A program made the translations under genes and the position numbers. A stretch of 64,000 nt of DNA, taken from NCBI GenBank assembly GCA_947625205.1, contig CANQNN010000011.1, positions 1 to 64,000 on the forward strand, read 5' to 3'. The notes under the pieces were generated by a model. It was not told the origin of the DNA. It searched no databases and saw only the letters and a program-made list of their open reading frames with translations. This document shows positions 325-57,935 of the stretch, one piece after another; the first letter of the stretch is position 1; the number at the start of each line of letters is the position of its first letter. This DNA comes from an uncultured Lachnospiraceae bacterium. GTDB taxonomy: Bacteria > Bacillota > Clostridia > Lachnospirales > Lachnospiraceae.

Positions 325-1278
325 ATGCTTTATTGTGTAATGTATCATTATGTGCGAGATTTGGCATACAGCAGATATCCGAAGATGAAGGCGATGGATA
401 TTAATTTGTTTCGCCGCCAGATAGCGTTTTTGAAAGAACAATTTCAATTTGTTACAATGGAACAAGTTTTGGATGCCATTGACGGACACACTGAACTGCC
501 GGATAGAGCAGTGCTTCTTACATTTGATGATGGGTATATTGATTGTTATACTTATGCATTCCCGATTTTGGAGGAAGCAGGTATACAGGGGACTTTTTTT
601 ATTCCTGCGAAAACGCTTGTCACTCATGAACTTTTGGATGTAAATAAACTGCATCTTATTCTGGCTGCTGCAGATGAGGATGCGCTGTTAAAGGATGTAT
701 TTGAACGGCTGGATTTTTATCGCGCGAGGGGGGGGGAGTATCCGGACAATGCAATCCTGTGGCAGAAGTATAGCGGTTTAAATCGTTATGATACAGAGAA
801 AATAAGTTTTATGAAACGCATTTTACAAACTGTACTGCCGGAAAATGTAAGAAAGAGCATTACGAGCGATTTGTTTGAACGATATGTAGGCGTGACGGAA
901 GCACAGATGTCACAGGAATTATATTTGACACCGGAACAGATCCGCGTGATGCGGCGTCATGGGATGTACTTCGGATTGCATGGCTATGATCATTACTGGC
1001 TGGGAGATTTGACGAAGAAACAGATGCAGGAGGATATTTCCAGAGGATTACAGATTTTGAGCCGGGAAGGCGTATTGGATTCCGACTGTTGGGTGATGAG
1101 TTATCCTTATCAGAGCTATAATGCGGAAGTGCTGAGTTATATTAGGCAGAAAGGATGTAAGGCGGGTTTTACGGAAGAAGTCAGAACGGCAAATCTTACG
1201 AAAGATAATCCCTATCTGCTGCCGAGATTTGATTGCAATGATTTGCCGCCCAAAAACGAAAATTTTTTATGCCAGTAG
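325..1278 (+). CDS. Polysaccharide deacetylase (NodB/CE4-like), with poly-G tract
   Basis: The 317-residue protein begins with a YHYVRD-type segment typical of the polysaccharide deacetylase superfamily. It carries the TFDDG metal/catalytic motif at residues 66-70 and a later GLHGYDHYW segment that resembles the second His-containing motif. Family members remove N-acetyl or O-acetyl groups from amino sugars using a divalent metal. No signal peptide or membrane segment is seen, so a cytoplasmic role on a precursor or lipid-linked sugar is inferred. ATG 325 follows AGGAGGAG with 6-base spacing. A nine-G tract (728-736) encodes part of R135-G136-G137-E138. Gain or loss of one G would shift the frame and truncate the protein in its second half. 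The next gene starts 8 bases after the stop. Confidence 0.85.
   Translation: MLYCVMYHYVRDLAYSRYPKMKAMDINLFRRQIAFLKEQFQFVTMEQVLDAIDGHTELPDRAVLLTFDDGYIDCYTYAFPILEEAGIQGTFFIPAKTLVTHELLDVNKLHLILAAADEDALLKDVFERLDFYRARGGEYPDNAILWQKYSGLNRYDTEKISFMKRILQTVLPENVRKSITSDLFERYVGVTEAQMSQELYLTPEQIRVMRRHGMYFGLHGYDHYWLGDLTKKQMQEDISRGLQILSREGVLDSDCWVMSYPYQSYNAEVLSYIRQKGCKAGFTEEVRTANLTKDNPYLLPRFDCNDLPPKNENFLCQ
728..736 (+). repeat. Poly-G tract (9 G) inside the deacetylase gene, in frame
   Basis: Nine consecutive G in the coding strand. At nine the frame is open; with 8 or 10 G, stops follow within about 20 codons (by-eye reading). Candidate slipped-strand phase-variation site. Confidence 0.85.
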
Positions 1279-1286
1279 GAGAAGAT

Positions 1287-2381
1287 ATGGATAACAGACG
1301 ACTTGCACAGGTTGCTGCAATGTATGAAAAGCGGTATGAGATACGTTTTTGCAGAAAGGAAGAGGCCGACGTATTGATGGCATTTCTTGACCGGTATTGG
1401 AAAAAAGGACATATTCTATCTAAGAATAAACGGTTGTTGGACTGGCAGTATCTGGATGAACGTTATGAACGGTATAATTTTATTCTGGCTGTCTGCAGAG
1501 AGGATGGAGAGATCCATGGTATTATGGGATTCATACCTACGGATCTGTTTGATGCTGAGATTGCGACGCCGATGAGGTGGGGAGCAATCTGGAAAGTGCG
1601 GGAGGATGTCGCCACAAAAGGCTTGGGATTGGCGATGAAATTTTATATGTATCAATATGCTCCAGCCCCCTATGCGGGTGGGATAGGTCTGTCTGCTTAT
1701 TCAAAATCCATCAACGCAAAGCTGGGAGAGGAGATGGGCGTTTTAAAGCATTATTATATGATCAACAACGAAAAGAAGGAGTTTTGTCTCATTAAAAACC
1801 TGACGTCCTGCTGTCAAATACCGGTCAGGGCAGACGGCCCGGCTTTTCTGGAAACAGACGAACAGAGTTTTTCAAATCATGAACGGGATTATGCGCAATA
1901 TCTGTTGCCATATAAATCCACACGGTATTATATTAATCGTTATTTTCGTCATCCGATGTATCAATATCATTGCGGAAGTTTGCAAAATGAACGGGGTGAG
2001 AACGCTTTTTTGTTTTATAGACTTTGCTGTCACGATGCTGCGCGATGCATTATGGTGGTAGATTTTATAGGGCAGGAGTCCGCATTGCAAGGGGCAGAAA
2101 GCGCCTTTGCCAAATTATTGGTGCAATATGATGCAGAATACCTGTCTTTTTATGAATATGGTATGGATGATGCTGTCTTAACAGCTGCTGGCCTGTCGCT
2201 GAAAACAGACACGGAAGATGGGGTGATCCTGCCTCTGTATTATGAGCCTTTTGTGCAGAAAAATGTTTTGGTAGATTATCATTATTTTAACGATGATTCC
2301 GTGGTGAGAAAGGTATTCTTTTTCAAAGGGGATGCTGATCAGGACAGACCTAACGAAGAGAGGGAGAATGCTGAGGCATGA
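1287..2381 (+). CDS. GNAT/FemAB-like acyltransferase, glycan-cluster type
   Basis: The protein has 364 residues from ATG 1287, which has AGGAGA at 1277-1282; an in-frame ATG at 1269 overlaps the previous gene and is less likely. The N-terminal third (an FCRKEEAD opening, a DWQYLDERY segment, then an IHGIMGFIP strand) has the look of the GNAT N-acetyltransferase proteins found in clostridial capsule and glycan loci. The C-terminal half is less recognisable and may be a second GNAT-like fold. The stop overlaps the next gene by 4 nt (ATGA), so it is translationally coupled to the AMP-ligase/carrier fusion. That pairing suggests transfer of a carrier-bound acyl or aminoacyl group onto an amino sugar, which is inference. 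No membrane segment. Confidence 0.65.
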   Translation: MDNRRLAQVAAMYEKRYEIRFCRKEEADVLMAFLDRYWKKGHILSKNKRLLDWQYLDERYERYNFILAVCREDGEIHGIMGFIPTDLFDAEIATPMRWGAIWKVREDVATKGLGLAMKFYMYQYAPAPYAGGIGLSAYSKSINAKLGEEMGVLKHYYMINNEKKEFCLIKNLTSCCQIPVRADGPAFLETDEQSFSNHERDYAQYLLPYKSTRYYINRYFRHPMYQYHCGSLQNERGENAFLFYRLCCHDAARCIMVVDFIGQESALQGAESAFAKLLVQYDAEYLSFYEYGMDDAVLTAAGLSLKTDTEDGVILPLYYEPFVQKNVLVDYHYFNDDSVVRKVFFFKGDADQDRPNEERENAEA

Positions 2382-4105
2382 GTGGATTGGGAGAATATTT
2401 GGAAAGAGCCGCATCAAAGAATCCGGATGGGCTTGCCGTGCTGGATGAAGTGCGGACATGCAGCTGGCGGCAGCTGGAGAAAAGTGCTTTGGCCATCGCC
2501 GCACAACTTCGTCAGTTCGGCGTTAAGAATCAGCCGGTGATTGTGGTCAGTGAGAGAGACAGCAGATGCATAGAATTGTTTTGGGGAATTATACTGAGCG
2601 GTAACTTTTATGTCGCTTTGAACTATAAAAATGAAAAACAGTCTTTTGCGGCAATATTGGAACGCATACAGCCGTTGGGTGTCCTGTTGTGCGGGCAGAA
2701 TCAGGAAATTGCAGATATATGTGCCGAATGCGGGATATATTGTAATGTGTATGCTGAACTGGTAAAGCGGTCGGATGTGGCGGCCATGTATGATAGCCGG
2801 ATATTGGATTCGGATCCGGCTTATATGGTTTTTACTTCAGGGACAACAGGAATGCCCAAAGGAGTCGTAAAATCGCACGGATCCGTCAAGGCGTTTGTGG
2901 AAAGTTTTGGCAGGGTCTTTCCACTGTCCGCACAGGATGTATTGGGGAATCAGGCAGAGTTTGATTATGATGTTGCGGCCAAGGATATTTATCTGTCTGC
3001 ATGTTTTGGTCTGCCGATGGCGATTATACCGAAGAAATGTTTTCTGATGCCGGCAAGGTTGATGGATTTTCTGGCATCGCATCAGGTTACGGTATTGATA
3101 TGGGCCTTTGCGGCTATTCGGATGGTTGCACAAAGCGGCTGCTTGGAGCGGGCCGGAGATTTGCCGCGGTTGCGGGCAGTCTTTTTTTCGGGTGAAACGC
3201 CGGAAGTTTCAGATATAAATCAATGGCTGGCTTATTTCCCGAAAACAATTTATGTGAATCTTTATGCGCCTAGCGAGGTGGCTGGTAACTGTATGTATTA
3301 CGTGATGCAAGGGGATGATTTGCCGAACAGGATTCCATTGGGAGAGACATTTGATAATGCGGAAGTCATGGTTTTAAATGATGAAAACCATAGGATCCAA
3401 GAAGGAGATATAGGAGAAATTTATGTGCGCGGCGATTTTATTGCGCTCGGATATTACAAACAAAAAGACGAAACAGATGACAGATTTGTTCAGAATCCTT
3501 TGCATGCCGATTACAGAGATATCGTGTATCGCACAGGCGATTTGGCTCGATTGGAGAAGGGTATGCTGTACTTCGCCGGGCGCAGGGACGATCAGGTTAA
3601 GTTTATGGGGCATAGAATCGAACTGGGAGAGATTGACCACACATTTCAGGATATGGGCATGGGAAACTGCGCCTGTTGTTTTTTGAGTGAAAAGAACGAG
3701 TTGATTCTATTTTATGAAGCTGATCTGCAACCCGCGGAAATCATGAAAAAATTATTGGAACGACTTCCCAAATATAAGGTACCCACCAAATATTACAGAG
3801 TAGAAAGTCTGCAACATAACGAAAGAGGAAAGATAGATAAAAGGCTGATGCAGATTCAGTATCAGAGGAGGATGGATATGAGAGAAAGATTGCAAACGAT
3901 ATTGCAGGGGATCAGGCCGGATATCGATTATGATACGACGAAAGGGCTGCTCACCGAAGAAATACTGGATTCGTTTGATATCCTAGCGCTTTTGGCACAA
4001 ATAGAAACAGTCTTCGGCATACAGCTGGATGTTGCGGATGTCAGTGAAGAACATTTTGATTCGCTGGATCAGATGGTGTCTTATATAGAGGGGGAGCAGG
4101 GCTGA
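2378..4105 (+). CDS. AMP-forming acyl/amino-acid ligase fused to a C-terminal carrier-protein domain
   Basis: The 575-residue protein is an adenylation domain of the ANL superfamily (DltA/NRPS A-domain like). It shows the P-loop TSGTTGMPKG near residues 153-162, an A5-like YAPSE segment, an A7-type YRTGDLARL, the A8 hinge GRRDDQVKFMGHRIELGEID and a C-terminal RGKIDK with the catalytic lysine (A10). Residues about 500-575 resemble an acyl/peptidyl carrier domain, with DSFD placing Ser532 as the likely 4'-phosphopantetheine site. The enzyme should activate a carboxylic or amino acid and load it on its own carrier domain. The specificity code cannot be read reliably by eye. It overlaps the GNAT gene by 4 nt and the methyltransferase gene by 1 nt, so the three form a compact module. 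Confidence 0.85.
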   Translation: MSGLGEYLERAASKNPDGLAVLDEVRTCSWRQLEKSALAIAAQLRQFGVKNQPVIVVSERDSRCIELFWGIILSGNFYVALNYKNEKQSFAAILERIQPLGVLLCGQNQEIADICAECGIYCNVYAELVKRSDVAAMYDSRILDSDPAYMVFTSGTTGMPKGVVKSHGSVKAFVESFGRVFPLSAQDVLGNQAEFDYDVAAKDIYLSACFGLPMAIIPKKCFLMPARLMDFLASHQVTVLIWAFAAIRMVAQSGCLERAGDLPRLRAVFFSGETPEVSDINQWLAYFPKTIYVNLYAPSEVAGNCMYYVMQGDDLPNRIPLGETFDNAEVMVLNDENHRIQEGDIGEIYVRGDFIALGYYKQKDETDDRFVQNPLHADYRDIVYRTGDLARLEKGMLYFAGRRDDQVKFMGHRIELGEIDHTFQDMGMGNCACCFLSEKNELILFYEADLQPAEIMKKLLERLPKYKVPTKYYRVESLQHNERGKIDKRLMQIQYQRRMDMRERLQTILQGIRPDIDYDTTKGLLTEEILDSFDILALLAQIETVFGIQLDVADVSEEHFDSLDQMVSYIEGEQG

Positions 4106-4785
4106 TGACAGAATATAGCAGAGACAATAATAAACAGAAAGAATTATGGGCAGCCGATAGGAAACAGCATGGGTTGCGGTATCCGGATGAAAATGTGATC
4201 CGCTTCCTGAAACGGACTTTTGAGGACGGTTCGGGAGTGCGCCTGATGGATTTCGGATGCGGCAGCGGAAGAAACGAAACGGTAATGATGGATATGGGGT
4301 TTGAGATTTATGCTGTGGATTATAATGAGAAATGTTTGAATATGACCCGGGAAGTAGCGGAAGAGCGTAAATATAATAAGATTCGTTATATCCTTAATGA
4401 CAAAACAGATATTCCTGTAGATGATGGTGTGATTGACTGCTTTGTCTCTCTGGGCGGTTTGTTTTATTTTAACAGAGAAGAACGCGATAGATTCTGGAGT
4501 GAAATGCATAGAATTCTCAGGCGGGGGGGGGTAGTGTTCGCCGATTTCCGCGCCGTGGATGATAGTATGTACGGGAAAGGGATAAAACTGGAAAAGGACT
4601 TCTATTGTCTGGAAGACAGTGGGAGTCTTTCGGGTATCAATTATTGGTTTTGTGACGAAAAAACATTGCGGGATCTGTTTTCCGACCATGGATTTACCAT
4701 ATACAATCTTGAAAAAAGAGATTATTACAGAGATAATATGAACCGGAGAAATTCACATTATTTTGTGTATGCGCGAAAAGAATAG
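4105..4785 (+). CDS. Class I SAM-dependent methyltransferase, with poly-G tract
   Basis: The 226-residue protein has a clear SAM-binding motif I (LMDFGCGSGRN, about residues 46-56), an acidic motif near AVDYN and a downstream RILRRGGVVFADF strand typical of small-molecule methyltransferases (Methyltransf_11/25 type). The substrate is presumably a sugar or the acyl group loaded by the neighbouring ligase. Its ATG overlaps the stop of that ligase by one base. The tract of nine G at 4523-4531 encodes the RGG of the RILRRGG turn. Loss of one G would put a TAG directly after the tract, and gain of one G reaches a stop within about 15 codons. The enzyme is in the ON frame here. Confidence 0.85.
   Translation: MTEYSRDNNKQKELWAADRKQHGLRYPDENVIRFLKRTFEDGSGVRLMDFGCGSGRNETVMMDMGFEIYAVDYNEKCLNMTREVAEERKYNKIRYILNDKTDIPVDDGVIDCFVSLGGLFYFNREERDRFWSEMHRILRRGGVVFADFRAVDDSMYGKGIKLEKDFYCLEDSGSLSGINYWFCDEKTLRDLFSDHGFTIYNLEKRDYYRDNMNRRNSHYFVYARKE
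4523..4531 (+). repeat. Poly-G tract (9 G) inside the methyltransferase gene, in frame
   Basis: Nine consecutive G. With eight the next codon is TAG, so slippage is an efficient OFF switch for this methyltransferase. Confidence 0.85.
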
Positions 4786-4820
4786 AAAGTAGATCGGGTC
4801 TTTCTGAAAATTGAAAAACG

Positions 4821-6287
4821 ATGAAAAGGATATTGGAAATGGCTAAGGATCATCATTCCGTGACAGAGCCGGAATTGCTTGAGAAATTTCTGCAGTTTGA
4901 AAATGAAGGGAAAGTGCTATCATATTTTTACAGCTATAAAAATATGCTGATTTGGCCTTTTGTCAGAAACGCCGTGTGGAATGCTGTTTATAAGAGTGTA
5001 TATGGGAACGATACCGGGTTGCTTGACATGACAGCGCAGGGGATGACGCGGGGGAGGCTGCGCAGTTACAAATGGTCGCAGTTTTTCAGGTTGCACCGAA
5101 ATCCTCTTTTTGGCTGTGGGCATAAAGATATTTTGTATTTATATCATGTAATAGGTAATATACAGGATCAGGAGGGGGTTTATTATAACCGTATTTATGA
5201 CGATTTTGTCGGATTGTATGACAATACAGCGATTATAGAGAGCGCTCCTTTATTTCACCATTTTTATCCCAAAAAGTACGAGACATATGATGCTGATTTT
5301 ATCGAGATATTGTGTGCTTTTCATGAGAAAATCGCGCCTTTGGGAAAACAGGATCGGGAGACGGTTCATCGTTTTCTCGCCTATTTAAAAAAAGAGCTTC
5401 CGTTTGCGGTTAAAGCACAATGTTGGCAGACCATACGGACGGAAACGGAAAGATATGCTAAAAATATGCGGCTCATATATGGCTATTATAAGTTGGTTTT
5501 TCAGCGTATCATGCCCAAAATTGTATTTGTTGCGCAGGGATGCGACGGTTCACATATGGCATGCAAACTTAAAGTTTTGCGGGATCTAGGCATACCGTCT
5601 GCAGAAATACAACACGGACTGATCAGCAGGGCACATTTCGCATATAATTATGCGCCTACTGTCTGCCACAGTACCATATATAAAGAGTATATGCCGGATT
5701 TCATGATGCTGTTTGGCACATTCTGGAAAGATTTGGTCAGAATGCCTGTCCAATTGGAAGTGTTGGGAAGCGCAAATTTTAATCGTAACTTTCATGCAGA
5801 AAGCAGGGAAGAAGAAAATATTGAGGATAGAAACAGTGTTTTAATTCTGCCGTCCGATTTGGATCGGTATATGGGGTTGATTTCTTACATCCATCAGGAA
5901 TTACCGGAGGCGAAGCTGTATATTAAAGTTCATCCGACGAAAAAACCACAATATGATGTCCTGAGAAAAATGGAGAATGAGCAAATTCGGGTTTATATCA
6001 AGGAAAATATCTATGATTTTCTCAAGAGGACGAAATTCGTTATAGGGGATGACAGCACTGTGCTGTATGAGGCGGCAGCCATGGGTAAAAAAGTATTCAT
6101 CTGGAAGAGCGTACATAGCGCGTCTTTTGATCGGAGAATTGGCATATGGTTTTCGGATCAGAGAGAAGTTGTACGATTATTACAGAATAACTGCGCGGAT
6201 GTAGAAATGAAAATTGCACCGGAAGACATCTTTGCGCGCAACAGTGCGGAACGATATCGTGCATTTATAGCCGAATATGTACAGTAG
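4821..6287 (+). CDS. GT-B-like glycosyl/polyol-phosphate transferase (capsule-synthesis type, QHG motif)
   Basis: The protein has 488 residues. The C-terminal half has the signature layout of capsule-type or CDP-glycerol-type GT-B enzymes: an AEIQHGLIS segment, a strand/helix ending in KLYIKVHPT, then GDDSTVLYEAAAMGKKV, which fits a nucleotide-sugar binding site. No signal peptide or transmembrane helix is seen, so a membrane-associated cytoplasmic enzyme is likely. The same architecture recurs at 14322-15800 and, more distantly, at 29880-31382. The donor is unknown; a nonulosonic acid or amino sugar made in the cluster is plausible. ATG 4821 lacks a good ribosome site, whereas ATG 4839 has AAAAGGA at suitable spacing, so the true start may be six codons downstream. 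Confidence 0.7.
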   Translation: MKRILEMAKDHHSVTEPELLEKFLQFENEGKVLSYFYSYKNMLIWPFVRNAVWNAVYKSVYGNDTGLLDMTAQGMTRGRLRSYKWSQFFRLHRNPLFGCGHKDILYLYHVIGNIQDQEGVYYNRIYDDFVGLYDNTAIIESAPLFHHFYPKKYETYDADFIEILCAFHEKIAPLGKQDRETVHRFLAYLKKELPFAVKAQCWQTIRTETERYAKNMRLIYGYYKLVFQRIMPKIVFVAQGCDGSHMACKLKVLRDLGIPSAEIQHGLISRAHFAYNYAPTVCHSTIYKEYMPDFMMLFGTFWKDLVRMPVQLEVLGSANFNRNFHAESREEENIEDRNSVLILPSDLDRYMGLISYIHQELPEAKLYIKVHPTKKPQYDVLRKMENEQIRVYIKENIYDFLKRTKFVIGDDSTVLYEAAAMGKKVFIWKSVHSASFDRRIGIWFSDQREVVRLLQNNCADVEMKIAPEDIFARNSAERYRAFIAEYVQ

Positions 6288-6313
6288 ACGTTGGCAGAGC
6301 GGAGAGAAGACTT

Positions 6314-8194
6314 ATGTGTGGAATATGTGGCGTGTACGATTATGACAATGCGATTGATCATGAACTGTTTGAGCGGATGGTTGATGTCGTTGCGTATCGA
6401 GGGCCGGACGACAGGGGGACATTTTACGGAGAGGGTATTGCACTGGGGCACAGACGGCTGGCGATTATCGATTTAAGCGATGAGGGACATCAGCCTTTCC
6501 GCTATCGAAACAGATATCATTTGGTATATAACGGAGAGATATATAATTATGTGGAATTGCGGGAGCAACTGCAAAAGAAGGGATATGTCTTTGCTACTAA
6601 AACAGACACGGAAGTGCTGGCCGCTATGTACGACTGCTATGGAGAAAACTGTGTCAAACAGATGAATGGTATGTGGGCATTTGCTGTTTTTGATGAACAG
6701 AAGAAGATTTTGTTCTGTTCAAGAGACCGATTTGGCATCAAACCGTTTTATTATTATCAGGAAGAAAAAAAGCTGATCTTTGCTTCGGAAATCAAACAGA
6801 TCGTGTTAATGGCGCAAAAAGATATGTATGTGAATCGGCAGCGATTGCTGGATTTTCTGATTATGGGAGATTTAGATCATACGGAAGAAACAATGTTTCG
6901 CGATATCCGCCAATTAAGGGGCGGTTATAATTTGATTGTAGATATGCAAAACGGCGTATGTATACGGAAAAAATACTATGATCTTGGCGAAACAGTGTTT
7001 GGCAAACAGAGTTATAAAGCGGCTTGCCGTGAGTTTCACAAGTTGTTTGAAAAGTCGGTAAAATTGCGGTTGAGGGCAGATGTGCCAATAGGGTATTGTC
7101 TGTCAGGCGGCTTGGATAGTTCGGCGATCGTCTGTATGGCTGACACTATCCTTAAATCCGGAGGCAAGGAAATAAAACAGCATACGATCTCTGCCTGCTG
7201 TGATGATAAAGAGTATGATGAACAGGAGTATATCGATGAAGTGGTGAGACACACACGAGTCGATGCACACAAAATATTTCCGAAAGAGGAAGAACTCTTT
7301 GCACATTTGGATGAAATTATCTGGCATATGGATGAACCGTTTGGATCCACATCTATGTTTGCACAGTGGAATGTTTTTCGGTGTGCAGGAGAACAGGGCC
7401 TGACCGTTATGCTGGATGGTCAGGGAGCAGACGAACAGCTGGCAGGATATACGGATTTTTACAGTGTGGCGTTGGCCCATTTCTTAAGGCATTTTCGATT
7501 GCTGACCTTTGCCAGAGAACTTCATGCCTATTGTAAAAGCCGCCGTGTGTCAGAAAAATATGTATCTGCGTTTGATGTTATAGCCAATGCCGTTGTCTCT
7601 GCTTTTGTGCCGGATGGTCTGAAAAAATATGTCAGGCGTAAATTGAAATATGGCTGTAAAGACTTGCCTTTTCCGGAAAAAATGATAGAAGAGACGCTTC
7701 AGAGACGGAAGAGATATGATGTCGGAAATCCGCGGCAGTATTCATTGGATCGCATGCAGTGTAGTATGGCGGCACTGCTCCATTATGAAGACAGAAATTC
7801 CATGGCATTTTCCATAGAATCCCGTGTGCCTTTTTTGGATTACAGACTTGCGGAGTGCATCTATTCCATGCCCATCTCCTATAAGGTTCGCAACGGAATG
7901 ACAAAGGCTGTGATGCGAGACGGACTGACAGGCATTTTGCCGGATAAAATCAGGCATAGAGTCAGTAAATTGGGCTTTGTGACGCCGGAAGATAAGTGGA
8001 TTAACAACAATTTCGAAAAATATCGGGCAGAAGTTTTGCAGGCCTGTGAGCAATTAAAGCCCGTCGTGAACCAAAAACGTGTTATGGAGTGGTTCGATAA
8101 GAATGCGCATGGCATAAAACGCGGAGATTATCTGGCATGGCGCTTGATTTGCGCGGGTCATTGGATACAGATATACAAGGTGAAGTTTGAATGA
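6314..8194 (+). CDS. asnB: Asparagine synthase (glutamine-hydrolysing) family
   Basis: The 626-residue protein begins MCGICGVYD, placing the catalytic N-terminal nucleophile Cys2 of the class II glutamine amidotransferase domain. The domain continues with RGPDDRG and an NGEIYN segment. The second half carries the ATP-pyrophosphatase loop LSGGLDSS and the downstream DGQGADEQLAGY motif of AsnB-type synthetases. Enzymes of this family amidate carboxylates with glutamine nitrogen. In glycan clusters they may amidate uronic or nonulosonic acids rather than aspartate. With the WbpBED uronic-acid genes just downstream, a uronamide product is an attractive inference. GGAGAG lies 7 bases before the ATG. 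Confidence 0.9.
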   Translation: MCGICGVYDYDNAIDHELFERMVDVVAYRGPDDRGTFYGEGIALGHRRLAIIDLSDEGHQPFRYRNRYHLVYNGEIYNYVELREQLQKKGYVFATKTDTEVLAAMYDCYGENCVKQMNGMWAFAVFDEQKKILFCSRDRFGIKPFYYYQEEKKLIFASEIKQIVLMAQKDMYVNRQRLLDFLIMGDLDHTEETMFRDIRQLRGGYNLIVDMQNGVCIRKKYYDLGETVFGKQSYKAACREFHKLFEKSVKLRLRADVPIGYCLSGGLDSSAIVCMADTILKSGGKEIKQHTISACCDDKEYDEQEYIDEVVRHTRVDAHKIFPKEEELFAHLDEIIWHMDEPFGSTSMFAQWNVFRCAGEQGLTVMLDGQGADEQLAGYTDFYSVALAHFLRHFRLLTFARELHAYCKSRRVSEKYVSAFDVIANAVVSAFVPDGLKKYVRRKLKYGCKDLPFPEKMIEETLQRRKRYDVGNPRQYSLDRMQCSMAALLHYEDRNSMAFSIESRVPFLDYRLAECIYSMPISYKVRNGMTKAVMRDGLTGILPDKIRHRVSKLGFVTPEDKWINNNFEKYRAEVLQACEQLKPVVNQKRVMEWFDKNAHGIKRGDYLAWRLICAGHWIQIYKVKFE

Positions 8195-8214
8195 CAGATT
8201 CAGTTGGCGGTTAG

Positions 8215-8243
8215 TTGCGGATTATATAAAAATGTTATATAAT
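8215..8243 (+). promoter_or_regulatory. Possible internal promoter
   Basis: TTGCGG at 8215-8220 (weak -35, 3 of 6), 17-base spacer and a perfect TATAAT at 8238-8243 lie in the 81-base gap between asnB and the GT4 gene. It could give an independent start for the 8.3 kb onward genes. The -35 is poor, so confidence is modest. Confidence 0.4.
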
Positions 8244-8275
8244 CAAGAAGATTTCCGAGCACGGAGAGATAATCA

Positions 8276-9397: not shown

Positions 9398-9408
9398 GGG
9401 GATAAAGT

Positions 9409-18083: not shown

Positions 18084-18091
18084 GGCGAGAT

Positions 18092-49304: not shown

Positions 49305-49329
49305 AGAAGAGATAAGGAAGGGTCGTGCG

Positions 49330-50301: not shown

Positions 50302-50305
50302 ACGG

Positions 50306-51550
50306 ATGGATGATAAGATCATGGTGTCAGTAGTCATGTTGGCATATAATCATGAAAGATATATACGCGAAGCATTAGAAAGCGTGTTGGCTCAGAAGGC
50401 AGATTTTACAATGGAAATCCTTATCCATGATGACGCGTCCACAGATCGCACCGCAATGATCATCAAGGAGTATGAAGATCGCTATCCGAATATAATCAAA
50501 GCAGTATATGAAAAAGAGAATCAATGGTCTAAGAATCTATATCATTTTAAAAAGATGATCTTTAACGAAAAAATCAAAGGAAAGTATTTTGCGTTATGCG
50601 AAGGCGATGATTATTGGACGGATGATGGTAAACTGCAGAAGCAGATCGATTTTTTGGAAACGCATCCGGAACATTCCATGTGCATGTCTAATGCATTAGT
50701 GCTGAATACTGGCACCGGGGAAGTGAAGCCGATGAATACATTCCCTGTGGAAGGTACATATTCGCAGGAAGAACAGATCAAGGCAGGGCTTGGATCTAGC
50801 TTCCCGGCAACCGCTTCATTCGTATTCAGAACGGAATTTCTCAAGGATATGCCGGATTTTTTCTACGAATGCGGCCCTTTTGATTACCCATTGCGCCAGT
50901 ATTATGCCGATCGGGGAAGCGTATATTATTTTGAAAAGCCTATGACTGTATACCGCACTGCGGTTTCCGATTCTTATATGAGCCGTATTAAGGAAGATGT
51001 GGCTTTTTATAATGATTATACAGTCGGCACGATTATTTTCTTTGAAAAATTTAACGACTATACGGAACAGAAATTCGATCACATTTTAGCCGATAAGATC
51101 ATCTCGGATTATCTTGGGTTTTGTCTGTCGATAGAATATAAAGAAGGACTGGCAAAGGCAGCTGCGGCTGGCTTGGATATGGATAAGATAGCAGCATGTT
51201 ACGACTGCCTGTCTGTGGATCATGTGAAACGTTGTATCTTGGATCTGGAAGATGCGACAGATCATCTATTTATTTATGGAGCCAGTAAACTTGCGATAGT
51301 CTGCAAGAACCGGTTGAAAGAGGCCGGAATAGACTTTGAAGGGTTTGTTGTGACGGACGGGCAGACGAAACCGGAGCAAGTGGAAGGTGAAAGAGTATTT
51401 TATCTGAGTGAAGCGATAAAGTTATATGCCCACCCGGGTTTTCTGTTGGCGATCCAGCCTGTCAATGAAGAAGTTATTCTTGACATATTAAAAAAATATA
51501 ATGTTGTTAACTATGGTAATCCGTATGCACTGAAAAATTACAGACATTGA
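50306..51550 (+). CDS. GT2 glycosyltransferase with C-terminal Rossmann-like module
   Basis: The protein has 414 residues from ATG 50306 with AGGAGG at 50291-50296. Residues about 5-240 are a GT-A fold of family 2 (VSVVMLAYNHERYIREAL, LIHDDASTDRT, CEGDDYWTDDGK). After a helical linker, residues about 310-410 form another small Rossmann-like module (LFIYGASKLAIVCKNRL, FEGFVVTDGQ, GFLLAIQP) with the same layout as those on the FkbM and radical SAM proteins upstream. The donor is unknown. The 3' end is only 4 bases from the poly-G tract at the start of the aminotransferase gene. Confidence 0.82.
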   Translation: MDDKIMVSVVMLAYNHERYIREALESVLAQKADFTMEILIHDDASTDRTAMIIKEYEDRYPNIIKAVYEKENQWSKNLYHFKKMIFNEKIKGKYFALCEGDDYWTDDGKLQKQIDFLETHPEHSMCMSNALVLNTGTGEVKPMNTFPVEGTYSQEEQIKAGLGSSFPATASFVFRTEFLKDMPDFFYECGPFDYPLRQYYADRGSVYYFEKPMTVYRTAVSDSYMSRIKEDVAFYNDYTVGTIIFFEKFNDYTEQKFDHILADKIISDYLGFCLSIEYKEGLAKAAAAGLDMDKIAACYDCLSVDHVKRCILDLEDATDHLFIYGASKLAIVCKNRLKEAGIDFEGFVVTDGQTKPEQVEGERVFYLSEAIKLYAHPGFLLAIQPVNEEVILDILKKYNVVNYGNPYALKNYRH

Positions 51551-51554
51551 AAAT

Positions 51555-51563
51555 GGGGGGGGG
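51555..51563 (+). repeat. Poly-G tract (9 G) at the translation start of the DegT aminotransferase gene
   Basis: The first G completes an ATG (51553-51555) and the last lies nine bases before ATG 51573. No other ribosome site is present, so the tract itself is the likely Shine-Dalgarno. With ten G the upstream ATG is in frame (MGGGIIFMDDR). Confidence 0.8.
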
Positions 51564-51572
51564 ATCATATTC

Positions 51573-52682
51573 ATGGACGATAGGATATTGGTGACTCGTT
51601 CGTCGATGCCGCCATACGAAGAATATATAGAGGCGATTAAACCGCTGTGGGATACACATTGGCTGACGAATATGGGACAGTATCATCAGCAGTTAGAGAA
51701 AGAATTGAAGGAATATCTGGGCGTTTCGGGATTGTCGCTAATGGTCAACGGTCATATGGCGTTGGAATTGGCTCTTCAGGCTTTTGATTTTCCGGAGGGT
51801 TCGGAGGTAATCACGACTCCGTTTACTTTCATATCTACGACGCATGCGATTGTTCGCAATCGCTTACAGCCTGTATTCTGTGATGTCAAATCGACGGATG
51901 GAACGATAGACGAGACGCGGATCGAGGATCTGATTACGGAGAAGACAGTTGCAATCCTGCCGGTACACGTATACGGTAATGTATGTAATATCGAAGGGAT
52001 ACAGAAAATAGCGGATAAATATGATCTACGGGTAATCTATGATGCTGCCCATGCTTTTGGCGTGAAGTATAAAGGGAGAGGCATCGGTAGCTACGGCGAT
52101 GCTTCAATATTCAGTTTTCATGCCACTAAGGTGTTCAATACTATAGAGGGCGGCGCGGTATCTTTTGCCGAACGAAGATTGTATGATAAGTTATATTATC
52201 TGAAGAACTTTGGCATACAGAATGAGGAGATTGTCAGCAGTGTCGGCGCGAATGCCAAAATGAACGAATTCGCAGCCATTATGGGTTTGTGTAATCTGAA
52301 GCATATAGGGGAAGCTATCGCTGAACGTAAGAAGCGATATGATCTGTACCGGGAGAGGTTATCGCGGAAGGGCATACGATTTTTTACGCCTACTCAGGAT
52401 GCAGACGGCAACTATGCCTATCTGCCGATTTTGATAGAAGAAGGATGCCGTATGACGAGAGATGCTCTGTATGAGGAACTGAAGCAATATGGTATCTATA
52501 CGCGGAAATATTTTTATCCGTTGACATCTGATCAGGCATGTTTTAAGAATCAATACAAGAGAGTGGCACTGGATACTGCGCGGAAGCTCTCTGACGAGGT
52601 GCTGGTACTGCCGCTCTATGATACTTTGTCTGTGGAGAGCATTGAGAGGATATGCGAACTCATTTCAGAAAGAGAAGGGTAA
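51573..52682 (+). CDS. DegT/DnrJ-family PLP aminotransferase (VioA/QdtB-like)
   Basis: The 369-residue protein has the family opening (VTRSSMPPYEEYIEAI, WDTHWLTNMGQYH), the PLP phosphate loop VNGHMALELAL, VIYDAAHAFGVKY with the ring-nitrogen Asp and FSFHATKVFNTIEGG with the Schiff-base Lys. The N-terminus resembles 4-aminotransferases acting on dTDP-4-keto-6-deoxyhexoses, whose product is the substrate of FdtF/VioF formyltransferases such as the one at 38097. LegC activity is an alternative. Translation seems to depend on a nine-G tract in place of a ribosome site, so expression may vary with tract length. Confidence 0.83.
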   Translation: MDDRILVTRSSMPPYEEYIEAIKPLWDTHWLTNMGQYHQQLEKELKEYLGVSGLSLMVNGHMALELALQAFDFPEGSEVITTPFTFISTTHAIVRNRLQPVFCDVKSTDGTIDETRIEDLITEKTVAILPVHVYGNVCNIEGIQKIADKYDLRVIYDAAHAFGVKYKGRGIGSYGDASIFSFHATKVFNTIEGGAVSFAERRLYDKLYYLKNFGIQNEEIVSSVGANAKMNEFAAIMGLCNLKHIGEAIAERKKRYDLYRERLSRKGIRFFTPTQDADGNYAYLPILIEEGCRMTRDALYEELKQYGIYTRKYFYPLTSDQACFKNQYKRVALDTARKLSDEVLVLPLYDTLSVESIERICELISEREG

Positions 52683-52690
52683 GATCAGAT

Positions 52691-54304
52691 ATGGACAGAA
52701 AAATAGAATTATTGGATTGTACGTTGCGGGACGGCGCCTATATCGTAAACGCTCATTTTGGTACACCGGCGATTACGGGTATCATCAAGAAAATGCGGGA
52801 TGCCAATATTGAGGTGATTGAGTGCGGTTGGCTGAAAGATACGGAGCATCAAGAAGGAACTTCTTTTTATCATGTGCCGGCAGATTTGGAGAGATATCTG
52901 CCGCAGAATAGGGGACGCGCCTCCTATGTCGCCATGATCGATTGGGACCGGTACAATGTGGACGCACTGCCGGCATATGACGGCAGAACGTTGGATGCGA
53001 TTCGGGTGGTGTTTCCGTGTAACAGGCATAAGGAAGGAATCGAAGTTGGACGCAAGATTGCCGGGAAAGGGTACCGGGTCTACTATCAGGCGGCGAATAC
53101 GCTGGCTTACAGTGACGAGGAGCTTCATGCATTGGCGACGGAAGCCAACGCTGCTTCGCCGGTCGCTTTGTCGATTGTAGATACATTTGGCGCAATGTAT
53201 CAGGAAGATCTGGAGCGGATCGTGGGAATTTTGGACAGGGAGCTTGACCCGAAGATTCGGCTGGGTTTTCATTCCCACAATAATCAGCAGTTGTCGTTCG
53301 CCTTGACGATGCATTTTGTGGAATTGTTACAGGATTCGGCACGAAGGTGTATTGTGGACGCAAGCCTGTGCGGCATGGGACGCGGTGCGGGCAATGCGAC
53401 GACGGAATTGGTCGCCAATTATTTGAACAGGACAGCGCACCATAATTACGACATGAATCAGATCATGGATGCCATTGATATGTATATGGGTTATTTTCAG
53501 GAAAATTATACTTGGGGATACTCCACGCCGTATTTTATCGCGGGGATGTATGGCTGCCATGTGAATAATATTGCGTATCTGCAGAAAAATCATCGCACAA
53601 ATGCGCAAGATATGCGCAATATTATCGAGTCTTTGACGCCGGAAGAGCGAACTCATTACGATTATGATCTACTGGAGGAAAAATATATAGAGAACCAGAA
53701 CAGGATTGTGGACGACGAACAGACGTTGGAGGTGTTGTCGCGGGAGATGGAGGGACGTCCGATTCTTCTGATTGCGCCCGGCAAGAGCGGACAGACGCAG
53801 ACAGATCGGGTGAAGCAATATATTGCAGAGCATAAGCCGATTGTCATTGGAGTCAACGCAATCAATCCCTTGTATGAATTTGACTACTTGTTTATGATCG
53901 GTGTGGTACGCTATAATTATGCCAAGGAAGTATATCCCGATCAGTTTCGGGAGACTAAAAAAATCCTGCTGTCCAGTATTAAGACCAAGCCGGACGATAA
54001 TGAAGTGATTGTCAATTTCAATCGCGTGGTGAAGCGGGGGTGGACGTATTTTGACAATGCAGTCATTGATTTGTTGCGCTTGTTGGACAAACTTCAAGTG
54101 GGGCATGTTGCATTGGCAGGATTTGACGGATTTAAACATAAGTATAATGAAAGTTATGCGGATCAGTCGCTCCCTACGTTGAATCCGGATAATCAATGGG
54201 ATATGCTGAATGAGGAGATCATGGATATGTTTCAGGATTTTAAAGTATCCACAAAAGGGACGATGGATATAGAATTTGTTACAGAGAGTATCTTTGATCG
54301 ATAA
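52691..54304 (+). CDS. Aldolase (HMG-CoA-lyase/DRE-TIM-like) fused to an uncharacterised C-terminal domain
   Basis: The protein has 537 residues from ATG 52691. Residues 1-290 are a DRE-TIM metallolyase barrel: LLDCTLRDGAYIVN, IEVIECGWLKD, LSIVDTFGAMY, GFHSHNNQQLSFA and DASLCGMGRGAGN, with the metal-binding Asp and His pair. Relatives are 4-hydroxy-2-oxovalerate aldolase and isopropylmalate synthase. Residues about 355-537 (PILLIAPGKSGQTQTDRV, VIGVNAINPLYEFDYLFMIG) form a second domain I do not recognise; it looks nucleotide-binding. Proteins of this architecture occur in surface-glycan loci. An aldol chain extension of a sugar is a possible role and would fit the ThDP enzyme at 41 kb. Confidence 0.75.
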   Translation: MDRKIELLDCTLRDGAYIVNAHFGTPAITGIIKKMRDANIEVIECGWLKDTEHQEGTSFYHVPADLERYLPQNRGRASYVAMIDWDRYNVDALPAYDGRTLDAIRVVFPCNRHKEGIEVGRKIAGKGYRVYYQAANTLAYSDEELHALATEANAASPVALSIVDTFGAMYQEDLERIVGILDRELDPKIRLGFHSHNNQQLSFALTMHFVELLQDSARRCIVDASLCGMGRGAGNATTELVANYLNRTAHHNYDMNQIMDAIDMYMGYFQENYTWGYSTPYFIAGMYGCHVNNIAYLQKNHRTNAQDMRNIIESLTPEERTHYDYDLLEEKYIENQNRIVDDEQTLEVLSREMEGRPILLIAPGKSGQTQTDRVKQYIAEHKPIVIGVNAINPLYEFDYLFMIGVVRYNYAKEVYPDQFRETKKILLSSIKTKPDDNEVIVNFNRVVKRGWTYFDNAVIDLLRLLDKLQVGHVALAGFDGFKHKYNESYADQSLPTLNPDNQWDMLNEEIMDMFQDFKVSTKGTMDIEFVTESIFDR

Positions 54305-54324
54305 AACTACTGGCGAAATTCTTA

Positions 54325-54353
54325 ATGACAAAAATAAAATAAAATAGTATATT
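54325..54353 (+). promoter_or_regulatory. Probable sigma-A promoter for the rfbF region
   Basis: ATGACA at 54325-54330 (5 of 6), a 17-base spacer and TATATT at 54348-54353 (5 of 6) lie in the AT-rich 97-base gap before the AGGAGG-preceded ATG at 54402. It would start a transcript for the CDP-sugar genes. Confidence 0.5.
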
Positions 54354-54401
54354 ATCTGTATTGAATGGTCTGCGCGTGCAGCAGATATTCAGGAGGGAAG
54401 A

Positions 54402-55181
54402 ATGAAAGTAGTCATTTTGGCAGGCGGTATGCAAAGTTCGATCAGCAACGAGGCAGAGGGAATTCCTAAACCTATGGTGGATATAGGCGGGAAGCCTCTG
54501 CTTTGGCATATCATGAAATATTTTTCACAGTATGGATTAAATGAGTTTATTGTCTGTGGCGGATATCGCGTGGATATGATCAAAGAGTATTTTATGGATT
54601 ACTATATCTATGCCTCTGACATCACGGTCGATCTGCGCACGAATACTGTCGAAGTGCATAATAAGAAGACGGAAGACTGGAAGGTCACTGTGGTGGACAC
54701 AGGACTGTTTTCCGCTACCGGGCAGCGAGTGGGAATGATAGAAAAATACATTGATGAAGAGAACTTTATTGTTACCTACGGGGATTGCTTGACAGACATA
54801 GATATACGGGAATTGATCAATGTGCATATGTTACAGAAAACACTTGCCACAGTAGTCATGGCAAAGCCGACAGGAAGAAATCAGTTGCTTCCGTTGGATG
54901 ATACCGGTAAACTCTGTTACGATCGGCCGCCACAGGTGTCCAATGACGTGGCTTGGGTGAACGGCAACTGTTTCGTTTTCAATAAAAAGATTTTTACCCA
55001 TCTGGTCGGCAATTATGATTTGGAAAAACAGCTCTTCGCAAAGCTCTCTGCGCAGCAGCAACTGTCTACATATCGGCATGACGGATACTGGGCGGCGATA
55101 GAGACAAAGCGGGATCTGGTCGATGCAGAGACTCTGTGGAATGCGGGCATCGCTCCGTGGGCTAAGAAAGTGACGGTTTAA
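54402..55181 (+). CDS. RfbF-like nucleotidyltransferase paralogue with a degenerate nucleotide loop
   Basis: The 259-residue protein aligns over its whole length with the RfbF at 55198 (start KVVILAGG, LWHIMKYFSQYG, WVNGNCFVF, DGYWAAIETKRD). However, the signature loop AGGKGTRIS is AGGMQSSIS here: Gly11-Thr12-Arg13 are replaced by Gln-Ser-Ser. Those residues normally contact the nucleotide triphosphate. The PKP lysine segment (GIPKPMVDIGG) and YGD metal Asp (VTYGDCLTDID) are kept. The protein may be inactive, regulatory, or have a changed nucleotide specificity. The frame is intact with AGGAGG upstream, so it is probably expressed and under some selection. Confidence 0.8.
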   Translation: MKVVILAGGMQSSISNEAEGIPKPMVDIGGKPLLWHIMKYFSQYGLNEFIVCGGYRVDMIKEYFMDYYIYASDITVDLRTNTVEVHNKKTEDWKVTVVDTGLFSATGQRVGMIEKYIDEENFIVTYGDCLTDIDIRELINVHMLQKTLATVVMAKPTGRNQLLPLDDTGKLCYDRPPQVSNDVAWVNGNCFVFNKKIFTHLVGNYDLEKQLFAKLSAQQQLSTYRHDGYWAAIETKRDLVDAETLWNAGIAPWAKKVTV

Positions 55182-55197
55182 AGAGGAGAGAAGCGGT

Positions 55198-55974
55198 ATG
55201 AAAGTAGTCATTTTGGCCGGCGGGAAAGGCACACGCATCAGCGAGGAATCAGTTTTAAAACCGAAACCCATGATAGAGATCGGCGGTATGCCGATCCTTT
55301 GGCATATCATGAAGCTGTATTCTTACTATGACTATCACGACTTTGTTATCTGCTGCGGATACAAGGGACAGATGATCAAAGAATATTTCATCCACTACGC
55401 TGCGTATCAAGCGGACAGTACGTTCTCACTGGCGGATCATAGCGTGACAGTGCATAAAAGCCATGCAGAGCCGTGGAGGGTCACCTTAGTCAACACAGGG
55501 CTCCACACATTGACGGCAGGACGCATATTAAAGATCAGGGATTATATAGGTGATGATGAAGAGTTCTTTCTGACATATGGAGATGGAGTTTCAAATGTCA
55601 ATATTCCGGCATTATTGGATTTCCATCATCAGAAAGGCAAGACGGTGACGATAACCACAACTCAGCCATTAGGCCGGTTTGGCGCACTCAAGATCGATCG
55701 GGAAGATCGTGTGAAGGGATTTAAGGAGAAAGCAAGAGCTGATTCGGCTTGGGTGAATGCCGGTTTTATGGTTATGAACAGGCGGGTCTTTGATTATCTT
55801 GGCGATGGCAGTGAGATGTTGGAGGCAGGACCGTTTGAGACAATAGCTGCCGCGGACGAAATGACAGCATATAAACATGAGGGATTTTGGTCGCCGATGG
55901 ATATGATGCGCGACAAAGCATATTTGGAAGAATTGTGGAGCAGCGGACAAGCGCCATGGAAAATATGGCAGTGA
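55198..55974 (+). CDS. rfbF: Glucose-1-phosphate cytidylyltransferase
   Basis: The 258-residue protein has the full motif AGGKGTRISEES at residues 7-18, KPKPMIEIGGMPILWHIM, FFLTYGDGVSNVNI and a closing HEGFWSPMDMMRDK, all characteristic of RfbF. It makes CDP-glucose from glucose-1-phosphate and CTP, the first step to CDP-3,6-dideoxyhexoses. RfbH (57979) and RfbG (59331) follow after a membrane protein gene. It lies 16 bases after its degenerate paralogue with an AGGAGAG site. Confidence 0.92.
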   Translation: MKVVILAGGKGTRISEESVLKPKPMIEIGGMPILWHIMKLYSYYDYHDFVICCGYKGQMIKEYFIHYAAYQADSTFSLADHSVTVHKSHAEPWRVTLVNTGLHTLTAGRILKIRDYIGDDEEFFLTYGDGVSNVNIPALLDFHHQKGKTVTITTTQPLGRFGALKIDREDRVKGFKEKARADSAWVNAGFMVMNRRVFDYLGDGSEMLEAGPFETIAAADEMTAYKHEGFWSPMDMMRDKAYLEELWSSGQAPWKIWQ

Positions 55975-56005
55975 ATAGAGATATCACGATGAAGGAGGCA
56001 TGATC

Positions 56006-57935
56006 GTGAATAGTAAAAAGATTTTCATATCATGTATTATAGGGGGGGGGCATTTCGATTGCCTTTTTCAATTGTGTGCATGAAAGCGATTTTTGGCGGG
56101 GAATAACGGGAGAACACAATCTTGTACAGTATATGCTTACCTGTGTCTCCTTTGTGATATTTTTCGGACTTTTTTATATTTTGTTTCATGCGGCTGTATT
56201 TGATAAGTTTTATTTGGTCGATATCCTATGCGCTGCCGCGTGTCTTGGCGTATTGATTTTTCATTATATTACTTGGGAACAGGAAGTGAATGTGCTGGCC
56301 GGAAAGGCGGGTAATTATATATGGCATCGATATCCCGGGCTGCTGGTGTTTGCCATTGTGCTTGGCCTTACCGCTTTATATAAAATTGTAACGGCCCATA
56401 TGAGCATTGATCATGGACAGGCGACAAAGATACTTCTGTTGTATTATGCCGTAATCATCGTCTTATGCGGTTATTTGAATTATTATCCGGAATATCTGAC
56501 AACAGATTATTATCACGGCAGCGCTATTTTTAATTCCGTATATAATGTGCTGCATGGGATCCCATATAATGAGATGAGTAACAGTATTTATGGCAACTAT
56601 GCGATCATTCTTGCGATTCCCATGAAAATACTGGGTATGGGAGAATATTTTGATTTCGCAAGACTCATGGGATTATTTACGTCTCTAACGACCATGTTTG
56701 CCATATATGTGATACACAATGTGATAAAGAACAAGGCTGTCCGGGTACTGTGCGTTTCGGTGTTGCCATATCAGGCCGTTTTCAGCACTTCAAATTATTG
56801 GCAGGAGTATCCGCTGAGAACTTTGTGCCCGTTGCTTCTTATAGCTTGGGTGATCTTTACAGACAGGCATCGGAAATGGAGCAGCAAAAGCAGATACCGC
56901 AAAGTTTGCATGAAATTGGTCACTTATATGATTTTAACTTTTTCGCTCGTATGGAATAAGGAGAGCGGCGTTGTCTGCCTGATTGCTTATGTATCATTTC
57001 TGACTTTGCAATACATCCTGTATGCATCCAAAGATGTTAAGCTGCTTTTGAACGGTTTGTTGGAAATGTTGCTGATGATGACCAGCGTGGCGGCGGCTTT
57101 ATGCATAGTTAGTCTTTACAATCTGATCGTCGCGGGCCAATGGGTCACATGGGATACTTTTTTCTTTCCGCTTTTTGTAAATAGCTATCGCGATGGTTTG
57201 ATGTTGCCTTTAGAATCAGGGATCTGGCCGTGGATGGGAGTGGTTTTACTTTTCCTCGGTATGTTTACATGCATGGTTCTCAGAGCGTTCTATGGAACAG
57301 GTCTTACGCCGGAGGAGTCCGCGTACCTGTTAGCCGCGATCACGGGACTTGGTCTGATGACTTATTTTATGAATAGGCCGGCTTATGGCAATATGTTTAT
57401 TTGTTTCTTTGAAGCCGTTATATGCATCGGGGGCTGTTCCGAACTGCTGATGCAGGGTGACGGTGCCGGAGATTTGAATAAATTTGTAGAAACTATGGCT
57501 TCCATGATACTGATTGCGCTTATAGCAGGGGAAGTATTGCAGATCGAGAACTCGTTGGCTTCCAATGCTTATGCAGGCTTAAATTCCTACAAGAAGGATT
57601 TCCTGGAACTGCGCGACCGGATAGCGCGGGAGGTAGAGCCGGATACCTATGCGTTTGGCATAGACATTCCCGAACTGTACAGTGTGTTGGGGTGGAATAA
57701 CCGAAGCCATACAAGTGGCTGGGGAGAGATTGGCGATGTATACGGAGACCGCGTAGCGGCACTGTACACGGATCTGGAGCGGGAAGATACCCTTATGACG
57801 ACCAGCAGTACGATGTCGAGATGGCCGGAAGTATCTGAGTATCTCAGGACAAAATATTATATCGCCAAGATATATACTTATCAAAACAGTGTGGATAGTG
57901 TTAAATTTTACCTGATGAAAAGAAGACCGGAATAG
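56006..57935 (+). CDS. Polytopic GT-C-like membrane protein, split near its N-terminus by a 9-G tract (predicted phase OFF)
   Basis: GTG 56006 follows GAAGGAGG (55991-55998) with good spacing; ATG 56000 is in the same frame. The frame reads VNSKKIFISCIIGGG, then runs out of frame after the nine-G tract and stops at 56081-56083 after 25 codons. With eight G it continues as GGGISIAFFNCVHESDFW into the long frame ending 57935, about 642 residues. The long frame has roughly a dozen hydrophobic helices and a soluble C-terminal region of about 120 residues, as in the membrane protein at 32264. A GT-C-type sugar transfer role is inferred. The tract lies inside the first membrane helix, so slippage controls nearly the whole protein. 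Confidence 0.8.
56042..56050 (+). repeat. Poly-G tract (9 G) that frameshifts the 56-58 kb membrane protein gene
   Basis: Nine G thirteen codons after the GTG start. Eight G restores the frame and completes a first transmembrane helix. Confidence 0.9.

What the first reader, a model, noticed from the sequence alone, without database searches (positions are those of the whole stretch)
728..56050. Thirteen nine-G tracts across one glycan cluster: a candidate multi-gene phase-variation system
Poly-G runs of exactly nine occur at 728, 4523, 16047, 18722, 33212, 36002, 37092, 38845, 43113, 44761, 48299, 51555 and 56042, all as G on the coding strand and all within or at the start of genes. A back-of-envelope estimate with 25% G gives well under one such run expected in 64 kb, and I see no C9 run. 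Flanking bases share no common sequence, so they are not copies of one element. Hypermutable poly-G contingency loci in glycan genes are established for Campylobacter and Helicobacter, and finding a dense set in what looks like a clostridial locus is unexpected. The combination could produce thousands of surface glycoforms. The uniform length of nine is itself odd: it may be a stability optimum or a consensus-calling effect.
Basis: partly seen in the sequence, partly recalled or inferred. Interest (0 to 1): 0.95.

Follow-up and report, generated by a model that had tools for sequence, protein, structure and literature searches.

The report
Genome-wide nine-G switches in Lachnospiraceae
This bacterium, likely a gut commensal of the Lachnospiraceae, carries 78 runs of eight to ten Gs, 60 of them exactly nine long and 13 of them packed into one stretch of sugar-coat genes, and they are predicted to act as random on/off switches for surface genes, a kind of many-switch genome so far described mainly in pathogens.

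Summary
The whole genome has 0 G7, 12 G8, 60 G9, 6 G10 and nothing longer: the window is a 7.6-fold hot spot of a genome-wide set, and nine is the mode of a narrow 8-9-10 peak. The peak recurs in a clade of sister species; two are named uncultured Lachnospiraceae MAGs.

The tracts look like contingency loci. Of the 13, six lie well inside an intact frame, two just before a stop, three where two frames meet, two at gene starts. One split methyltransferase aligns to intact homologues in two frames that change at the tract. Orthologous tracts persist between species at nine Gs even in another codon phase. Of 184 tracts in four genomes, 11 sit between near-consensus -35 and -10 boxes (1.2 expected; none on the opposite strand). 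MutS and MutL are present.

The phase-variation reading is supported, not proven: reads were not available and no within-species length change was seen. Kind: known (simple-repeat phase variation). Lineage, number of tracts and sharpness of the length peak are unusual.

The parts
728..736 (+). G9 inside a 317-aa polysaccharide deacetylase gene (325-1278), in frame
   Evidence: a 58%-identical sister gene has its own G9 at another place
4523..4531 (+). G9 inside a 226-aa methyltransferase gene (4105-4785), in frame
16047..16055 (+). G9 inside a 388-aa gene without Pfam match (15834-17000), in frame
18722..18730 (+). G9 12 nt before the stop of a PglD-like acetyltransferase gene (18014-18745)
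33212..33220 (+). G9 inside a 683-aa gene without Pfam match (32258-34309), in frame
36002..36010 (+). G9 inside a DUF6056 gene (35616-37082), in frame
37092..37100 (+). G9 overlapping an ATG just upstream of a family 2 glycosyltransferase frame (37107-38072) that lies in another frame
38845..38853 (+). G9 20 nt before the stop of an N-formyltransferase gene (38097-38876)
43113..43121 (+). G9 where two frames meet: 42824-43216 upstream and FkbM methyltransferase frame 43128-43961 downstream
44761..44769 (+). G9 inside an FkbM methyltransferase gene (43985-45028), in frame
48299..48307 (+). G9 where two frames of one FkbM methyltransferase gene meet (upstream frame ends 48340, downstream frame 48297-49304)
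   Evidence: homologue P0002 aligns 2-61 to frame +2 ending at 48277 and 72-366 to frame +3 from 48309
51555..51563 (+). G9 overlapping an ATG just upstream of a DegT aminotransferase frame (51573-52682) that lies in another frame
56042..56050 (+). G9 near the 5' end of a 619-aa frame (56076-57935, no Pfam match); the short upstream frame and the downstream frame differ
325..60428 (+). + strand run of glycan-type genes: two NeuB synthases (19862-20875, 28835-29872), UDP-GlcNAc 2-epimerase (20872-22041), cytidylyltransferases, aminotransferases, formyltransferases, methyltransferases, glycosyltransferases
   Evidence: genes after 57935 were not scanned (one search failed)

Best explanation
The 13 nine-G runs are the densest group of a genome-wide set of 78 G8-G10 tracts that most likely work as slipped-strand phase-variation switches, chiefly of surface and glycan genes. 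Shown: positions, lengths, the 8-9-10 peak, frames that change at tracts, the Pfam classes affected, tracts kept at orthologous places in sister species, and tracts in promoter spacers. Inferred: during replication a tract gains or loses a G; inside a gene or on its start codon this would change the reading frame and turn the product on or off, and between the -35 and -10 boxes it would change the spacer and so promoter strength. Nine is read as the length where gains and losses balance, not as a codon requirement, because orthologous tracts stay at nine in different codon phases. Cells of one population would then differ in combinations of acyl-, methyl-, formyl- and glycosyl-transfer to the envelope.
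For: Exact counts G7 0, G8 12, G9 60, G10 6, none longer, cross-checked by 228 overlapping G7 windows, while A and T runs fall off smoothly in 238 kb. Hot spot of 13 of 78. Same peak in sisters: G8-G9-G10 10-63-8 in G014, 8-81-6 in G005, 4-60-4 in G010; 25 of 48 genomes of the genus have more G9 than G7, against 1 of 31 from other families of the order. All 7 genomes with at least 20 G9 and at least 5 times the G7 count fall in one clade of 8 in a MutS tree, support 95/89. FkbM gene split at 48299 with homologues whole; an acyltransferase domain cut by a G10, profile 2-187 and 174-325 in two frames. DUF6020: same tract place, one frame in G014, two in own genome, both G9. Tracts sit in loops that vary among homologues. 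Promoter spacers: 11 of 184 tracts with at most 2 mismatches, 1.2 expected from slid positions, 0 on the opposite strand. Contig ends: 11 tracts within 500 bp, 3.0 expected (hand tally, contig counts of two genomes rounded), as mixed lengths or poor G-tract reads would give.
Against: No within-species length change was seen; reads and other strains' DNA were not reached. Representatives of two protein clusters of this species or a near one (P0122, 21 members, 4 contigs; P0241, 21 members, 3 contigs) show the same state as the window's genome (members themselves not seen), so those loci may be fixed. 18722 and 38845 are near gene ends and would change little. Mismatch repair genes are present. 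The peak is sharper (77% at nine) than published C. jejuni rates give (43%; PMC8224891 Table 2), which slippage alone does not explain here. The 11 promoter tracts include two likely orthologous pairs (L022/L195, L197/L210) and one inside an open frame (L032), so fewer are independent. Only 3 of the 11 are in the own genome and none in the window.
Confidence: 0.8

Rival explanations
1. Assembly or base-calling artefact: real homopolymers of various lengths are written as nine, so the frame breaks are errors.
For: All are consensus assemblies, the sisters likewise MAGs; a B. breve study found that database G-tract lengths can differ from true ones (PMC9187656, passages). Tracts lie near contig ends more often than expected.
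Against: G8 and G10 are called in the same assemblies; the tracts' places (promoter spacers, start codons, lipobox ends, orthologous positions) cannot come from length errors; A/T runs show no such peak. A cultured isolate assembly, Schaedlerella arabinosiphila DSM 106076, has 18 G9, with only 1 G8 and 1 G10 in 260 kb picked around them. Single ON/OFF calls may still be wrong.
Confidence: 0.08
2. RNA-level slippage or programmed frameshifting: the DNA stays at nine and RNA polymerase or ribosome slips on the G run, so each gene is partly expressed whatever its frame.
For: Length is nine in both in-frame and broken genes; the DUF6020 representative P0122 keeps the broken reading.
Against: Does not explain tracts in promoter spacers, nor why G8 and G10 occur; no stimulatory structure was looked for.
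Confidence: 0.06
3. Neutral by-product: a replication or repair bias of this clade makes G9 runs, which stay where they do little harm.
For: Enrichment is concentrated in one clade; tracts lie in tolerant loops; some relatives of the L047 protein seem to have an interrupted tract (protein rows P0243, P0247; DNA not seen).
Against: A bias should leave a gradient of G6-G8, which is missing. Tracts cluster 7.6-fold in one glycan locus, lie in promoter spacers and were gained at different places of the same deacetylase gene in two species.
Confidence: 0.06

Closest known systems
Campylobacter jejuni poly-G/C phasome (29 loci of seven or more in NCTC11168; PMC4965091 abstract and passages)
   Same: Many G tracts in surface-glycan genes, modal lengths 8-10, frame switching
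   Different: Here about 78 tracts of G8-G10 in a Lachnospiraceae-type genome, a sharper peak at nine (77% against 43% from published rates), MutS and MutL present; switching not demonstrated
Neisseria meningitidis porA-type promoter tracts (poly-G between -10 and -35; PMC3899988 passage)
   Same: G tract as part of the spacer between -35 and -10 boxes (11 of 184 tracts)
   Different: Effect on transcription untested; spacers at nine Gs are mostly 16 or 19
Bifidobacterium breve G-tract pilus switches (PMC9187656, passages)
   Same: Gut commensal, G tract joins or separates two frames of a surface gene, slippage measured there
   Different: One or two loci per genome there; dozens here, with glycan and signalling targets
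Invertible-promoter phase variation in gut bacteria and Clostridioides difficile (PMC11868660, passages)
   Same: Random switching of surface and c-di-GMP genes in gut anaerobes; here GGDEF-EAL and histidine-kinase genes also carry tracts
   Different: Site-specific recombination there, simple repeats here

Membership tests
Simple-sequence-repeat (homopolymer) phase variation | Repeat tract far longer than chance in or before a gene | tested here: met
   13 G9 in the window against 0.43 expected; 78 genome-wide
Simple-sequence-repeat (homopolymer) phase variation | Tract placed so that a length change alters frame or promoter spacing | tested here: met
   Frames change at tracts; promoter spacers. 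Two of 13 in the window are near gene ends
Simple-sequence-repeat (homopolymer) phase variation | Both ON and OFF states found | tested here: met
   In-frame and split genes in one genome; one orthologous gene whole in G014 and split in own genome. Between species, not between cells
Simple-sequence-repeat (homopolymer) phase variation | High-rate reversible length change | not testable with these tools
   Needs reads or passaged clones
Campylobacter/Helicobacter-type phasome | MutS/MutL mismatch repair lacking (recalled, not from a call) | tested here: not met
   MutS 935-aa open frame and MutL 632-aa open frame in own genome
Neisseria-type promoter-spacer switch | G tract between -35 and -10 boxes at workable spacing | tested here: met
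   L022 TTGACA-19-TATAAT in own genome, L195 in G012; 11 of 184 against 1.2 expected. Not met by the window's 13 at 3 or fewer mismatches
Neisseria-type promoter-spacer switch | Transcript level follows tract length | not testable with these tools
   No expression data

The most novel reading that the evidence does not exclude
A clade of uncultured Lachnospiraceae, mismatch-repair proficient and probably harmless gut residents, runs one of the largest simple-repeat phasomes known: up to about 80-95 poly-G switches per genome held at exactly nine by an unusually sharp mutational balance, working at both translation and promoter level, with surface-glycan clusters as combinatorial hot spots.
Probability: 0.5. 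Interest if true: 0.8.

Novelty: new member of a known kind. Interest (0 to 1): 0.66.

Why it matters
[quoted passage not shown] A commensal-type Lachnospiraceae clade with dozens of poly-G tracts per genome bears directly on it. If it switches, much of the envelope diversity of such gut bacteria, as met by antibodies and phages, would be made by slippage, and gene calls in their MAGs would take switched-off genes for pseudogenes. A named isolate with 18 G9 tracts (Schaedlerella arabinosiphila DSM 106076) makes it testable in culture.

Tried and rejected
Codon-phase requirement as cause of nine: rejected; the L047 family reads its tract as RGGGQ in own genome and KWGGVN in G012, both G9. Common element around tracts: none seen by eye. 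Coding-strand rule: the longest nearby ORF lies on the G strand for 49, on the C strand for 11 of 65 own tracts, 5 have none of 100 aa (sisters 73, 32, 14 of 119), so a bias by a crude measure, not a rule. Loss of mismatch repair: rejected. Naming by 16S: none found in the assembly. Promoter-spacer reading for the window's 13: none at 3 or fewer mismatches. The single genome-contig scan gave no close relative of the 48299 gene (best 40%; near records may be left out by the tool), so same-species DNA was not reached.

Literature: ten searches. Among the papers listed, none was on simple-repeat phase variation in Lachnospiraceae; several lists were capped (20 of 139: 20 of 197: 15 of 27: 10 of 14), and only open-licence PMC text is held. 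Papers were seen as listings, abstracts or passages, none whole.

Rows dropped or weak: in the MutS tree G021 gave a wrong 600-aa frame and an absurd branch, G003's stretch is cut, and G008 and G024 were left out for lack of a full MutS. Reading context was examined for 65 of 78 own tracts (60 of 60 G9, 3 of 12 G8, 2 of 6 G10) and 119 of 199 in G010, G012, G014. G7 and G9 were counted in all 79 relatives, G8 and G10 in 15 of them.
Full report
OBSERVATION. All 13 G9 runs are exact, on the + strand, with no G6-G8, no G10+ and no C7+ in the window. A first-order Markov model of the window expects 0.43 runs of nine or more and about 20 of six to eight, of which there are none; it also overpredicts G4 and G5 runs, by 1.6 to 1.9 times. 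In the whole genome (2,908,702 bases, 44 contigs) exact counts are G7 0, G8 12, G9 60, G10 6 and none longer. The 228 overlapping G7 windows equal 12x2 + 60x3 + 6x4. The window thus holds 13 of 78 tracts in 2.2% of the genome (1.72 expected, P 1.6e-8). In 238 kb of the same genome (the window plus stretches chosen around tracts) A and T runs fall off smoothly (A6 126, A7 31, A8 9, A9 1), while G and C runs together are 3 of six, 0 of seven, 2 of eight, 41 of nine and 2 of ten.

WHICH ORGANISM. Two sister genomes are named through loci: G014 is isolate Lapin-023__bin26 (5,765 of 5,765 compared bases identical to L053) and G012 is Lapin-012__bin100 (same 45 tract positions), both titled uncultured Lachnospiraceae bacterium. 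A third such record, Lapin-021__bin26, has 53 G9. That Lapin means rabbit, and that the source is gut, is inference.

SPREAD. Of 48 genomes of the genus (own included) 25 have more G9 than G7; of 31 genomes from other families of the order 1 has (G057, 7 against 2). Summed, the genus has 653 G9 and 336 G7, the other families 55 and 776. The richest are G005 81, G014 63, own 60, G010 60, G012 45, G019 39, G031 31, G020 25. In a MutS tree of 50 rows, own, G005, G010, G012, G014, G019, G020 and G026 (14 G9) form one clade (95/89); G031, G023 and G032 (31, 22, 20) lie outside it. Sister G014 has an equally dense stretch, C4 about 91-155 kb, with 11 G9, 2 G8 and 2 G10; 10 proteins at its tracts include a pyruvyl transferase, glycosyltransferase 61, UDP-GlcNAc 2-epimerase, FemAB-like, GDSL, radical SAM and a weak FkbM match, and 3 without match.

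GENES. The part of the window scanned (325-57935) is a + strand run with two NeuB synthases, UDP-GlcNAc 2-epimerase, cytidylyltransferases, PglD, DegT aminotransferases, formyltransferases, three tract-bearing FkbM methyltransferases and glycosyltransferases. Of 40 proteins scanned at tracts elsewhere in the genome, 13 had no Pfam match; the rest are mostly envelope- or glycan-type (acyltransferases, methyltransferases, hexapeptide and GNAT acetyltransferases, formyltransferase, radical SAM, a LytR-CpsA-Psr protein, DUF6056, DUF6020, DUF2142, a large glycosyltransferase-pyruvyltransferase protein), with GDPD, carboxylesterase, GGDEF-EAL, histidine kinase and AlbA_2 besides.

STATES. Six of the 13 tracts lie well inside one open frame (728, 4523, 16047, 33212, 36002, 44761); two lie inside a frame but 12 and 20 nt before its stop (18722, 38845); three lie where two frames meet (43113, 48299, 56042); two overlap an ATG just upstream of a gene in another frame (37092, 51555). 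At 48299 homologue P0002 (54%) aligns with residues 2-61 to frame +2 ending at 48277 and 72-366 to frame +3 from 48309; 15 of 120 homologues hit the region in two frames at the threshold used, the rest hit the downstream frame only. The tract sits where homologues vary in sequence. In L031 one acyltransferase domain is cut by a G10, profile positions 2-187 in one frame and 174-325 in another. Genome-wide, by a crude rule, 34 of 65 own tracts are in one frame. Of in-frame tracts in longer genes (own and sisters, n 65) the median position is a third of the way in.

CROSS-SPECIES TESTS. 119 sister tracts (46 of G012, 63 of G014, 10 of G010) were compared with 65 own tracts. DUF6020 is 89% identical with the tract at the same residue; it is one frame in G014 and two in own genome, with nine Gs in both, because the flank differs; the genome search returned the own pieces as query 1-102 and 92-543. 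Homologues outside the two species lack the Gly run: 5 of 122 aligned rows have GGG there. TylF (88%) keeps Shine-Dalgarno, ATG and tract in both species, in both with the ATG frame ending after a few codons. The L047 protein (69%) keeps the tract in a different codon phase, and some relatives seem to have it interrupted, judged from protein only. The deacetylase at 728 and its 58% sister each have a G9, at different places. So length nine is stable while frame and place are not.

PROMOTER TRACTS. Of 184 tracts in four genomes, 11 lie between boxes with at most 2 mismatches in total to TTGACA and TATAAT; 0.7 are expected from random and 1.2 from slid positions, and the opposite strand has 0; at 3 mismatches it is 16 against 7.9 and 5. 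Three of the 11 are in own genome. Spacers at nine Gs are 16 in five, 19 in five and 17 in one. The DUF4854 lipoprotein has TTGACA-19-TATAAT around a G9 in own genome (L022) and in G012 (L195), and in G012 a second G9 follows the lipobox cysteine of the same gene.

AGAINST. No within-species length change was seen. The representatives of clusters P0122 and P0241 (21 sequences each, members not seen) show the window genome's state. MutS and MutL are present. C. jejuni rates (PMC8224891 Table 2) give a broader stationary distribution, 43% at nine against 77% here, so the sharp peak needs its own explanation.

VERDICT. A known mechanism in an unexpected place and number: most likely a multi-locus poly-G phasome in Lachnospiraceae, with a hot spot in a glycan gene run. 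Switching itself remains to be shown.

Noticed in passing
L022:1502 (own genome, - strand); L195:1502 and 1678 (G012): One DUF4854 lipoprotein gene has a G9 in a consensus promoter spacer in two species, and in G012 a second G9 right after the lipobox cysteine: a possible double switch.
   Followed up: partly
11 promoter-type tracts in own and sister loci: At nine Gs the -35/-10 spacer is 16 or 19 in ten of 11, not the usual 17, as if nine were a weak-promoter state.
   Followed up: partly
L303 (Schaedlerella arabinosiphila DSM 106076, C1:1640000-1659999): Four tracts (three G9, one G10) within 11 kb, one in an MBOAT acyltransferase gene, three at frame breaks of long genes without Pfam match.
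   Followed up: partly
window 51555-51573 and 37092-37107: The G run also lies 6-9 nt before a possible start codon and could serve as a ribosome binding site of variable spacing.
   Followed up: no
window 31430-32230: Gene of the aminoglycoside 3-N-acetyltransferase Pfam family inside the glycan run; here more likely a sugar acetyltransferase (inference).
   Followed up: no
contig ends of G000, G012, G014: At least 11 tracts lie within 500 bp of a contig end, 3.0 expected by a hand tally.
   Followed up: partly
L039:1214-4918 (own genome): A 1,235-aa frame with a G9 combines two glycosyltransferase domains, an F420 dehydrogenase beta-like part and a polysaccharide pyruvyl transferase.
   Followed up: no
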